Shown here piece by piece: positions 40,555 to 54,500 of a DNA stretch of 64,000 bases; position 1 is the first letter of the stretch, and every line of letters starts with the position of its first letter. Position numbers and translations under genes: made by a program. The DNA is from Micromussa lordhowensis. Taxonomy: Eukaryota; Cnidaria; Anthozoa; Scleractinia; Lobophylliidae. The stretch spans positions 12,268,282 through 12,332,281 of the forward strand of contig OZ026607.1 of assembly GCA_964020085.1 (NCBI GenBank), written 5' to 3'. Below the pieces are notes generated by a model that was not told the DNA's origin, searched no databases, and was given only the letters and a program-made list of their open reading frames with translations.

Positions 40555-43500
40555 TCATAGTTCATCGTGTTGGCGTAGGTGTTGATACATCTTTCGTTCA
40601 AATGAAGGATCATGTACTTTGGAACTGTGGAACTTGAGTAGAGCTTGTGGAATAAGACCCTCAATGTCTGCCAGGGCAATGTCTTTGTCATGTGCTCCAA
40701 GACTTGCAACAATCTAAGAAGAAATGATAGATAAAAATGTTTGTACAACTAGTGAAAGTTAATTGTGAAGCTATTACTAATACTAATAAAATTGGTTATG
40801 CATGCACATGTATCACATATGTTCACAAAAATGTTATGGGCTTTTCTTGTGTTTGTTTTCAAAAGGGATAAATGTTGGTTGAACCGTAAGAGAAAAATAC
40901 TCACTTGGAGCATTCTAAAGAGTAATCAAATGGTATCAGAAAATGTTTTGGGCAACCTAGCCTCTGATATATGATATTCCTAGTCTTTTGCAGAACTAAT
41001 TGTCATTTTTGAAAATGACAGACATTTTTTCTTTGTACTTTGCTTGTGATCTAAAAAATGATATTAAACACTGTCTAGTAAAGTAGTAAATTACATTCAA
41101 TCTGTAGCAGTCACTCATATGATGTAATTACCTCAGCAGCCTTGCTAGGAGTTCCTCCAAGATCCTTAGCGAACGAAAAGCAAAGAATCAAACGTATTGC
41201 TAGATGATAACCAAAACTGCTCCCTCATGCTAAGTAGACTCTGAAAAAATGTGTGGTACTAGGAATTATCATGTCCACCCCAAGGTTTTTAAGAGGATTT
41301 CTAAAGCTTAAGCTTTTAATAAATGGTTAAGTTTTAAAAGGAACCTGAAGGTAAATGTTACTTTCCAGAGGGGTGGTGGGGTCAATCAAACCAAGAAACC
41401 TTACAGAGGAGGGGTATGGATATTTTGGCCAGGTAATCATACATGTACCTCATGGTCCTGAGGGAGGAAGGGGTAATGACAAAAAACAAAATATATGGGG
41501 TGTGTACCCAGTGGTTTGTGACACAAATGTCCGAAATAAACACAAGATTATTATGGATTCCAACTGGCAGGAGGTTGACCAGTTAGCTATTTACATTGCA
41601 TGTTGAATTCAGGAACACCAAAAACACATCCATGGCCAGCTAGCAGCTGTAGGTAGGGCTTCAGAAGATGACTGGAATATCTGGGTGGTTGGATTAATAA
41701 CTGGATTCTGTTGTATAGAGGACATGACTGTTTTCTAACATTTCTTTTCTCTTACCTTTACATAACTTGAAATAAACTGTTCTCTGTCAAAATTTCCTCT
41801 TGTATCATGGCAATGAGTAAGCAGATCTCTGTTATGTATAAAAAAAAGATTTATTAATAGACTGAAAATTAATAAATTGAATTACATGATCTTGCAAACT
41901 TAAGATCATTTCGTTGTAAAAAAATAAAAATGAATGAAAAGCTGAACATCAGAAGAAATGCATAGAAACAAGGTTAATTTCGGGTGGTGAAAAAAAGTGA
42001 GTAATTACTATAATTTGGATGATTGATTGACATGATTTGTTTACCTGCTTGTTTTTTTTGTTCATTATTTCTAAATATCAATCACACATTGATTAAATAA
42101 GTCGAGATTGTCTAATCGGCGTGGGTGGGTGGGTCGTGGGTTGGTAGGTCGTGGGTCGTGGGTCGTGGGTCGTGGGTCGTGGGTCGTGGGTCGTGGGTCC
42201 CCATGTGTGGTCGTGGGTCCCCCATATATACACGTCATGTATGCATAATTTTATGCTGTTTCCGATGCCCTCTCACAACAGCGGTTTTGTCCGCGATCTC
42301 TTTCTGGCGTGTACACTGAGTGATTGTGCCAAAGATGTTACGTTAACATTCTGCCAGTGGTTCACACTTACTTACTTAGCACTTAGATCTCTCCGCGCCA
42401 GGAGGCGCAGTGGTTCACATTTTATTATTATTTTAAAAATAACAAACAAACTGCGGTTGTAAACATAATGAGACAACGCATGTTGTAAAAACTTTAGTTA
42501 TGAACTTGACGTTACGTATGCTCCAACATACGAAACGTCAAGTTCATAAATGAAATTTTTTACATGCGTTGTCTCGTTATGTTTATAACCGCAGTTTGTT
42601 TGTTATTTTTACTCAAGTTGAAATGACCGAAGAATAAGAGTGTCTTTTATTTATTTTACTTTTTTTTATCAGCGACTGGAAATTCTCGAAACAGACAAGA
42701 CCTTATAAAACGATTTGACTGACATCCTTCCTTTGGCTGATAAGGATCAGTCACTTCTCTGTAAATGTCTGTTATGAATTTAAGAATATCCAACTCACCG
42801 GCGTATCCGCCATGACGAAGGCTTCTGGCAAACACGTGCATTTCAGCTATTTTTAACCAATCATACTTGACAAAAATCCCATGACATGTTTGCTGGAAAA
42901 TGACTCAAAAATTCGGTTACAGCCATGACGCAACTTTTTCGTGTTTTCCAAAAGTTGATCAGTTGTTCTTTTCTTTTACTTGAAATGCCGACAAAAAGCC
43001 GTAGATCGTTATATCGAAGTTGTTATTCCATTAACGTGAGTTCTGGGAAACAAACAAGCAAGTTCAACACACTTTTCTATATTAATTAATGCAATCATTC
43101 TCGGCAAACGCGCACGCCAATGTTAAACGTATACTTTCGAACACTTTCGTTATACCAAAATTATTCGCCAGACCAGACGGAAAAATATTTATAGTTAATG
43201 GGAGACAGTTTTCCTTTGTTCAACGTTTCATAAAACCGAGGAGTTCGGGGAAATTAATTCGTGAGCGGGCAATTGCAAATTTGGACAGAGCACTGAGGGA
43301 GCTAATATACTTGTTTTTTATCTTCAAGCAAACACGACCCACGACCCACGACCCACGACCCACGACCCACGACCCACGACCCTCCACCCACGACCCACGA
43401 AACACCCACCCACGACCCACCCACCCACGCGATTTAGCCTGACCCAAATAAGTCACATAATTGAATGGCATATAAATGACTTCAACTGATTGTGACTGGC

Positions 43501-53287: not shown

Positions 53288-54500
53288 TACCCACTGACTC
53301 ACTTGCCGCCTATAGCCGGCTGTGACAGGCGTTCGCCTTTGTTCCACTTCTGATAGTCATCATCTTTGACCAAAATTGGCATCATCTATACTCAAGTTCC
53401 GCAGGAGAAAAAGATCTTTCCAATGATACCCAGGTCACGAGTGATTGGCTCAATGGAGCCTGAAATATTCTCAAAAATGCTCAGAAATTTGAGTGAAAAT
53501 CTCGCAGCAAAATTTCCTGCGGCTACACCTAGCTACTCCACGGTACTGGAAGCAAGCCCAGTAGAAGGTCAATCACTCCAGCAATAAGATAAGAAATGGA
53601 GAAATAGGAAGGTGAGAAAACAAAAACAAAAAATGTCGTAAGACGCGATGCTAGGGGAAAGAAAGGCATACTGTCATGTTGCAAATGCCTTCTTGAGTAG
53701 ATTTGCGCTAATTTGGCCAGGCTGAAAATCTCCAAAATGTCCAAAAATATTTTGGCAAAAAGCTCCGGGAGTGAGTCAATGGGTTAATCCATTTGCATTT
53801 GAAAAGACTCCCAGCATAGGCCTCAGCTGTAAGCTAGTTCCGGTCCAATGCAGATACATGTAATACAAAAATGGCTAAGAGTGCTTTCTAAAATGAGTTT
53901 CAAAAGTAATCAGGCAATTATAGGGAATATCATTAAAAAGAGATCAATGTCATTAGCATTTGAAAAGACTCCCCACATTAGCCTCAGTTACAAGCTAGTT
54001 GCAGTCCAATACCGGGGATACGAACTGGACGGCCTATTGAAAACGGCTCTCGGTTTAGTTTATATTTGTTTTCTTGTCTTTGCAGGTATGTTAACCATGT
54101 GTTATATTGGGCAATCATGTCTCCAAACCCGAACAGCGACGAGCGAAAACCCTCGGGCAGAGTAGCTCAGCTTATCGACGAGACCTTTGGCAGTTACTCT
54201 AACTTCCAGTCAATGTTTGAGAACACTGCTTTGGAAGTTTTTGGTTCAGGCTACGCTTGGCTCTGCCTGGACGTTGAACAAGGTGGTTTGAAAATCAGTG
54301 GCACTGCAAACCAAGACAGCCCTTTAACCTTGGGTCTTCTGCCTATCTTAGTCATCGATGTGTGGGAGCATGCGTATTATCTTCAGCACCAGAATCGTCG
54401 GGCAGCATATGTGAAGAATTTTTGGTATGTTATCAATTGGGATGCCGTCAGTGAGTTGTTGGAATGGTGGCCAAAGCAAGCCAAACACGATGAACTGTGA
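50158..54500 (+). CDS. ER-targeted Mn-type superoxide dismutase with C-terminal HDEL
   Basis: Three exons: 50158-50415, 52557-52660, 54086-54500 (GT-AG, phases 0 and 2); 777 nt, 258 aa. Residues 1-25 (MASIVWGLGFFCFFIYVFLR...) are a hydrophobic signal peptide, not a mitochondrial presequence. The SOD fold follows: all four metal ligands are present as His64 (VHHMGHH), His125 (YVNHVLYW), Asp212 and His216 (IDVWEHAYY). Second-shell Tyr72 and Gln197 (ANQDSP) are also kept; the Gln in the C-terminal domain is the Mn-type arrangement. The protein ends KQAKHDEL, an ER retrieval signal. It converts superoxide to oxygen and H2O2, here predicted in the ER lumen. It is transcribed divergently from the JmjC oxygenase gene. 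Confidence 0.93.
50716..50955. repeat. Palindromic repeat family D, copy 2 (SOD intron 1)
   Basis: ACAATTAGACCCGTAGCCCT, CATGGGCTATTGACCCGTGG and GCAATAGT/ACTATTGC-type arms match the copy at 32960 in opposite orientation. The right flank AGTTGGGTGATACTAATGCT matches CAGTTGGGTGATACTTAAAC there. Confidence 0.75.
51296..51400 (+). mobile_element. tRNA-derived SINE-like head (SOD intron 1)
   Basis: TTTCTCAGTGGTTAGAGTGC (A-box type) and GGGCTAGAATCCTGTCGGGA (B-box type) at tRNA spacing. The B box is degenerate and the acceptor stem unpaired, so this is not a functional tRNA. It differs from SINE family S. Confidence 0.5.
52972..53151. repeat. Near-perfect long palindrome (SOD intron 2)
   Basis: ATAATTTGGTTTTATCAACT pairs with AGTTGATAAAACCAAATTAT. 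The arms of about 85 bp continue through GATTCGGAAGCTGACGTTTC to a centre near TTCGCTCCGACGAA. Only about two mismatches per arm are visible. Confidence 0.92.
53248..53287 (+). repeat. (ATT)n microsatellite
   Basis: Thirteen ATT/TTA triplets in SOD intron 2, in the flank of a short GTTATAAGTAAATAAA tail, probably the tail of a mobile element. Confidence 0.9.
53790..54020 (+). repeat. Imperfect direct duplication next to SOD exon 3
   Basis: GCATTTGAAAAGACTCCCAG with TAAGCTAGTTCCGGTCCAAT recurs about 160 bp later as GCATTTGAAAAGACTCCCCA with CAAGCTAGTTGCAGTCCAAT. GGGAATATCATTAAAAAGAG (53924) also recurs near 53159. Confidence 0.6.

What the first reader, a model, noticed from the sequence alone, without database searches (positions are those of the whole stretch)
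40555..54500. Head-to-head pair: ER-lumenal JmjC oxygenase and ER-lumenal MnSOD, both ending HDEL
The start codons are 121 bp apart on opposite strands, both products have signal peptides, and both end in the ER retrieval tetrapeptide HDEL (RQHDEL and AKHDEL). Divergent genes with one short promoter are often co-expressed. An Fe(II)/2-oxoglutarate oxygenase depends on reduced iron, and a superoxide dismutase in the same compartment could protect it or supply H2O2 for oxidative folding. I know of no described system that pairs the two. Sequence geometry and tails are seen; co-function is inference.
Basis: partly seen in the sequence, partly recalled or inferred. Interest (0 to 1): 0.85.

Follow-up and report, generated by a model that had tools for sequence, protein, structure and literature searches.

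The report
Paired ER oxygenase and SOD genes
In this coral, two genes for enzymes expected to work inside the protein-folding compartment, an oxygen-using hydroxylase and a superoxide-removing enzyme, sit back to back with 121 bases between their start codons; both belong to old animal families, one of them already published, and whether they work together is untested.

Summary
A JmjC/cupin-8 gene (minus strand, 8 exons, 509 aa, ends RQHDEL) and an Fe/Mn-type SOD gene (plus strand, 3 exons, 258 aa, ends AKHDEL) have ATGs 121 bp apart. Catalytic residues are complete in both. Relatives keep ER-type tails: 34 of 42 SOD rows and 35 of 42 JmjC rows. The SOD falls in an animal clade apart from mitochondrial SOD2 that was most likely the one published in 2022 as SOD2X (PMC9524095); its conserved HDEL tail and a near-diagnostic Trp123-to-Tyr change (43 of 44 rows; 5 of 174 others) are added here. 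The JmjC protein belongs to an orthologous family (cnidarians, deuterostomes) for which two searches found no description; its fold is JMJD5-like. Adjacency in other species could not be tested; in Ptychodera flava, the only named species in both hit lists, both lie on contigs of identical length. Against a tight partnership: different distributions across animals, 11 other places with JmjC relatives in this genome but one such SOD, and no full ER-stress motif in the interval. Co-function remains inference.

The parts
40555..50036 (-). ER JmjC (cupin-8) oxygenase gene; coding exons 50036-49804, 47448-47218, 46695-46388, 45555-45227, 44015-43852, 41828-41756, 41164-41132, 40713-40555; 509 aa, ends RQHDEL
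   Evidence: relatives
50037..50157 (.). 121-bp interval between the two start codons, presumed shared promoter and 5' leader region
   Evidence: function inferred only
50158..54500 (+). ER Fe/Mn-type SOD gene (SOD2X-like); coding exons 50158-50415, 52557-52660, 54086-54500; 258 aa, ends AKHDEL
56033..58610 (+). FKBP14-like ER isomerase gene; coding exons 56033-56244, 57523-57793, 58455-58610; 212 aa, ends KHGEL
   Evidence: (174-aa piece)

Best explanation
Two old, catalytically intact ER-lumenal enzymes lie head to head in this coral. The SOD is a SOD2X-type MnSOD: it enters the ER by its leader, is returned through HDEL, and turns lumenal superoxide into O2 and H2O2. The JmjC protein is an ER-retained Fe(II)/2-oxoglutarate protein hydroxylase with a JMJD5-like beta-helix and a helical, perhaps EF-hand-like, C-terminal half; it acts on proteins passing through the ER. 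The most likely sense of the arrangement is a short shared promoter region giving similar expression in secretory cells, beside an FKBP14-like isomerase. A direct partnership (the SOD protecting Fe(II) enzymes from superoxide) is possible but not shown. Shown: geometry, tails, catalytic residues, family placement. Inferred: localisation, activity, shared promoter, co-function.
For: Gene models and gap. Tails: 42 SOD rows give 23 canonical H/K/R-DEL, 11 variants, 8 none; 42 JmjC rows give 25, 10, 7. MnSOD ligands His26, His74, Asp159, His163 in 32 of 32 rows over 200 aa, Gln143 in 31 of 32. JmjC HxD...H and 2OG lysine invariant in 31 of 31 aligned relatives (the window protein, read directly, has them too). 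SOD clade of 34 rows, 100/98. JmjC tree with a cnidarian clade (96/93) and a deuterostome clade (81/86), as expected of orthologues. Three neighbouring genes with ER-type ends.
Against: No expression data and no second species with tested adjacency. SOD hits in molluscs, a brachiopod and a nemertean without JmjC hits; JmjC in tunicates without a listed SOD. 11 further places in this genome match the JmjC protein at E up to 0.001, but the SOD type was found once. No full ER-stress motif in the interval, no unusual CpG content. Equal contig length shows at most one chromosome. No named stony coral showed this SOD among the listed hits; its coral relatives there are fragments of unnamed source. 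KHGEL is a variant tail.
Confidence: 0.7

Rival explanations
1. Chance neighbours. Two independently useful ER enzymes came to lie head to head in this coral lineage; the short gap has no bearing on function and the two are not co-regulated beyond what any close gene pair is.
For: Different distributions across animals; many JmjC relatives elsewhere in the genome without a second such SOD; no full ER-stress motif in the interval.
Against: A run of ER genes should be rare by chance, but that estimate is after the fact and rests on recalled numbers.
Confidence: 0.2
2. A true functional module: the SOD guards a superoxide-sensitive or superoxide-leaking ER hydroxylase, with the FKBP14-like isomerase acting on the same clients, as vertebrate ER hydroxylases work with isomerases (recalled: P3H1 with cyclophilin B; FKBP14 and PLOD1 linked to similar Ehlers-Danlos disease).
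For: Shared compartment and short divergent gap, the third gene, Ptychodera contig length.
Against: SOD hits in phyla without JmjC hits; no direct evidence of any interaction.
Confidence: 0.1

Closest known systems
SOD2X, ER MnSOD clade of aquatic metazoans (PMC9524095, BMC Biol 2022;20:212)
   Same: Both MnSOD domains, clade apart from mitochondrial SOD2, 10 of 18 members predicted ER in that paper, found in sponges, cnidarians, annelids, brachiopods and others
   Different: Its main text does not mention HDEL, KDEL or retention, and one passage of its conclusions calls the clade predominantly extracellular. Tail conservation and the Tyr signature are added here. Its sequences were not seen, so sameness of the clades is inferred.
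Mitochondrial MnSOD (SOD2)
   Same: Same fold family and active site; human SOD2 matched at 150-155 bits
   Different: Different leader, HDEL tail, separate clade; bacterial SODs score higher, up to 204 bits. This coral has its own SOD2-like exon on contig C7.
JMJD5/KDM8
   Different: The family here has a hydrophobic leader, a helical C-terminal half and an ER tail; Phe stands where JMJD5 has the Trp of its arginine pocket (W310, recalled; alignment)
JMJD8
   Same: JmjC protein in the ER lumen, brought there by a signal peptide (PMC5684140: abstract and passages seen)
   Different: JmjC-only; KDEL and retention do not occur in that paper's main text. No sequence comparison with JMJD8 was made.
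FKBP14
   Same: Third gene matches 4msp over residues 32-212, 112 bits
   Different: Tail KHGEL in place of HDEL

Membership tests
Fe/Mn superoxide dismutase, Mn type | Sod_Fe_N and Sod_Fe_C domains over cut-off | tested here: met
   81.8 and 128.7 bits against cut-offs 27 and 20.9
Fe/Mn superoxide dismutase, Mn type | Metal ligands His26, His74, Asp159, His163 and outer-sphere Gln143 (human numbering) | tested here: met
   present in the window protein; ligands 32 of 32, Gln 31 of 32 long family rows
Fe/Mn superoxide dismutase, Mn type | Manganese-dependent dismutase activity | not testable with these tools
   needs purified protein
SOD2X | Animal MnSOD clade separate from mitochondrial SOD2 | tested here: met
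   34 rows on one side of a branch, 100/98; SOD2 side holds only human SOD2 and one coral exon
SOD2X | Groups with the published SOD2X sequences | not tested
   those sequences are in supplements that could not be read here; matched by description and taxa
ER-lumenal resident proteins | Cleavable leader plus K/HDEL-type C-terminus | tested here: inconclusive
   HDEL ends exact in both and conserved; the leader was judged by hydrophobicity only
JmjC Fe(II)/2OG oxygenase | HxD...H triad and 2OG lysine in a double-stranded beta-helix | tested here: met
   invariant in 31 of 31; model of the 85%-identical P0122, pLDDT 90.8, matches JMJD5. Pfam Cupin_8 over cut-off; the Pfam JmjC model is below its own (18.3 against 24 bits)
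JMJD5 arginyl hydroxylase | Trp of the substrate-arginine pocket (W310, recalled) | tested here: not met
   Phe at the aligned place; one residue, recalled criterion
EF-hand proteins (C-terminal half of the JmjC protein) | EF-hand domains | tested here: inconclusive
   at E up to 0.5, EF-hand_6 in 14 and EF-hand_7 in 12 of 31 relatives, best E 3.2e-4; none in the window protein at E 0.01
FKBP14 | FKBP_C domain, EF-hand pair and ER tail | tested here: met
   FKBP_C 88 bits and EF-hand_7 45.8 bits on a 174-aa piece; full length against 4msp; tail is the variant HGEL, which also ends the Lineus SOD P0177

The most novel reading that the evidence does not exclude
A conserved ER gene module from early animals (JmjC hydroxylase, SOD2X, FKBP14-like isomerase) in which a dedicated MnSOD removes superoxide formed around, or harmful to, an ER hydroxylase, later lost in vertebrates.
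Probability: 0.1. Interest if true: 0.8.

Novelty: new variant of a known kind. Interest (0 to 1): 0.5.

Why it matters
No SOD of the ER lumen is known to me in mammals (recalled), so how the ER handles superoxide is open. An HDEL-tailed MnSOD kept across many animal phyla makes the question testable in corals, sea anemones and molluscs, and the Trp-to-Tyr signature gives a handle on its chemistry. The JmjC-HDEL family looks like an unstudied set of secretory-pathway hydroxylases kept from cnidarians to tunicates. If the pair proves conserved and co-expressed, it would tie an ER oxygenase to its own superoxide control; if not, each family still merits study.

Tried and rejected
Early idea that the SOD lacks its outer-sphere Gln (Phe in VFGSGYAW; note): wrong, the Gln lies in NQDSP and is present. 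Full ER-stress elements: none; short cores only. CpG island: not unusual. Sigma-70/terminator scan of 49900-50300: no promoter-like site, one terminator-like site over the SOD start (shuffle mean 0.4); not meaningful in an animal. Repeats at 49500-50700: one 17-nt palindrome. Adjacency elsewhere: no tool holds other animal genomes; contig lengths of protein hits were the only lead, and Ptychodera flava is the only named species in both hit lists. Full mitochondrial SOD2 of this coral: one exon read; parts of L006 read N and were left alone. NCBIfam: no hit for two JmjC rows, only hits below cut-off for two SOD rows. Foldseek and VIA lists gave JmjC-type chains and did not name the C-terminal half (50 rows shown each); it was not folded alone. 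Fold searches used one model, of P0122; the window protein was not folded. Paper searches: 10 used. PMC5447177 (passages) screened a protist for ER tails and is not about this clade. That the JmjC-HDEL family is undescribed rests on (58 papers, 20 listed; 6 papers, none with the word JmjC) in an open-access library. FKBP copies in this genome: requests not answered.

Full report
What is there. The window lies on contig C13 of a 580.8-Mb assembly. Its JmjC protein is 91% identical to one of the coral Orbicella faveolata, so the source is a stony coral close to it (inference). I rebuilt both genes from the sequence. The JmjC gene runs on the minus strand from 50036 to 40555 in eight coding exons and gives 509 aa ending RQHDEL. 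The SOD gene runs on the plus strand from 50158 to 54500 in three exons and gives 258 aa ending AKHDEL. The introns are GT/AG and 121 bp lie between the ATGs. It missed the next plus-strand gene: an FKBP14-like protein of 212 aa that starts 1,532 bp after the SOD stop and ends KHGEL.

The SOD. Both Pfam SOD domains score well over cut-off; metal ligands and outer-sphere Gln and Tyr are present. Two protein searches (each scored 8000 candidates and listed 120) gave relatives in cnidarians (Actinostola, Rhopilema), molluscs, Lingula, annelids, a nemertean, hemichordates, a sea urchin, amphioxus and the sponge Oscarella, plus coral-like fragments from unnamed sources (72-93% identical). I took 42 rows as family members by score or identity, with tails in view; two coral-like fragments whose HDEL is followed by further residues (P0050, P0120) were left out of the tail count. 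Of the 42, 23 end in H/K/R-DEL, 11 in variants (HEEL, HDEF, HEEF, HTEL, HGEL, HHEL) and 8 in none. Of those 8, the two Mytilus rows carry HDEL followed by YLWF, P0186 is a fragment, and two other Lingula rows, Solemya, Helobdella and Oscarella lack it.

SOD tree and signature. In a tree of 60 rows, 34 rows of this kind form one clade (100/98), Oscarella branching first, apart from human SOD2 and one exon of this coral's own SOD2-like gene on contig C7. The nearest other rows are P0100 and P0193 (93/94), of unnamed source, so the origin of the clade is open. Bacterial SODs are also closer than SOD2 by sequence (204 against 150-155 bits). Where human SOD2 has Trp123, 43 of 44 family rows have Tyr (Oscarella has Trp); of 174 other SOD rows 167 have Trp, 5 Tyr, and 2 did not fit the pattern. 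The clade is most likely the one published in 2022 as SOD2X (PMC9524095: abstract, passages, sections 5 and 9 seen). There 10 of 18 members were predicted ER; one passage of the conclusions calls the clade predominantly extracellular. HDEL, KDEL and retention do not occur in its main text. The tails seen here speak for the ER.

The JmjC protein. Cupin_8 matches at 1.9e-43; the Pfam JmjC model stays below its cut-off. In 31 aligned relatives the HxD...H triad and the 2OG lysine are invariant. The model of the 85%-identical Oculina protein P0122 has pLDDT 90.8. Solved relatives are JMJD5 first, then JMJD7, TYW5 and FIH. Phe stands at the place of JMJD5's pocket Trp (recalled), so the substrate probably differs. 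The C-terminal half is helical, with weak EF-hand signals in 14 of 31 relatives. Of 43 hits I dropped P0163, a mammalian HSPB1-associated protein 1, and classed 42 tails: 25 canonical, 10 variant, 7 none. Of the 7, P0131 ends HGELE and P0137, P0139, P0153 and P0159 look truncated; the rows include near copies (P0158, P0161 and P0162 are all Macrostomum). The tree of 37 rows has a cnidarian clade (96/93), a deuterostome clade (81/86), and a separate clade with Pocillopora and Stylophora rows ending HTEL or HSEL; some distant rows sit on long branches. In this genome 30 matches comprise 7 in the window gene and 23 in 11 other places (hits within 50 kb merged; the weakest at E 7e-4), while the SOD type was found once.

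Do the two belong together? For: the short divergent gap, the same predicted compartment, a third ER-type gene beside them, and equal contig length (44,037,996) of the SOD and JmjC hits in Ptychodera flava, which suggests one chromosome. Against: no JmjC hit in molluscs, Lingula or Lineus, where the SOD was hit; no such SOD listed for tunicates, which have the JmjC; no full ER-stress motif, only short cores, in the interval; ordinary CpG content. No named stony coral or Nematostella SOD of this type was among the listed hits, so even co-occurrence in a second coral species was not shown. The searches filter by shared words and lists are cut at 120, so absences are weak.

Mechanism. Shown: geometry, tails, active-site residues, family placement. 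Inferred: ER import and HDEL retrieval; dismutation of lumenal superoxide; hydroxylation of secretory proteins; a shared promoter. A direct link, in which the SOD limits superoxide that harms or leaks from Fe(II) enzymes, is chemically sensible but untested here.

Verdict. Observation confirmed, interpretation partly supported. The SOD is a new member of a probably published clade; the JmjC protein belongs to a conserved family for which searches found no description; the pairing is an open question that comparative genomics and single-cell data could settle.

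Noticed in passing
56033-58610 (+): FKBP14-like ER isomerase gene directly downstream of the SOD, ending KHGEL: three ER-type genes in a row.
   Followed up: partly
5791-11316 (-): Open frame of 1,841 aa largely made of repeats with a 93-bp period (GNVGQQG-like); a Pfam DNA_binding_1 hit with no single stretch passing is probably spurious.
   Followed up: partly
about 27260-36200 (+): Gene with an MPN/JAB domain (JAB 4.7e-07 on a 64-aa piece), perhaps MPND (name recalled; extent guessed from open frames).
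   Followed up: partly
about 60652 onwards (+): Gene with a proline N-methyltransferase domain (Methyltransf_PK 5e-14), NTMT1-like (name recalled).
   Followed up: partly
15678-16835 (+) and 17847-18656 (-): Retroelement-like remnants: a zf-RVT hit below cut-off in the first; the second holds stops and was not searched.
   Followed up: no
protein P0187 (metagenome source): Fe/Mn SOD with a hydrophobic start that ends AKDEL but falls outside the animal ER clade on a long branch: possibly a second, independent ER SOD.
   Followed up: partly
G000 contigs C1, C3, C4, C10, C12: Eleven further places with relatives of the ER JmjC protein, one a cluster at C1:49.69-49.73 Mb.
   Followed up: no
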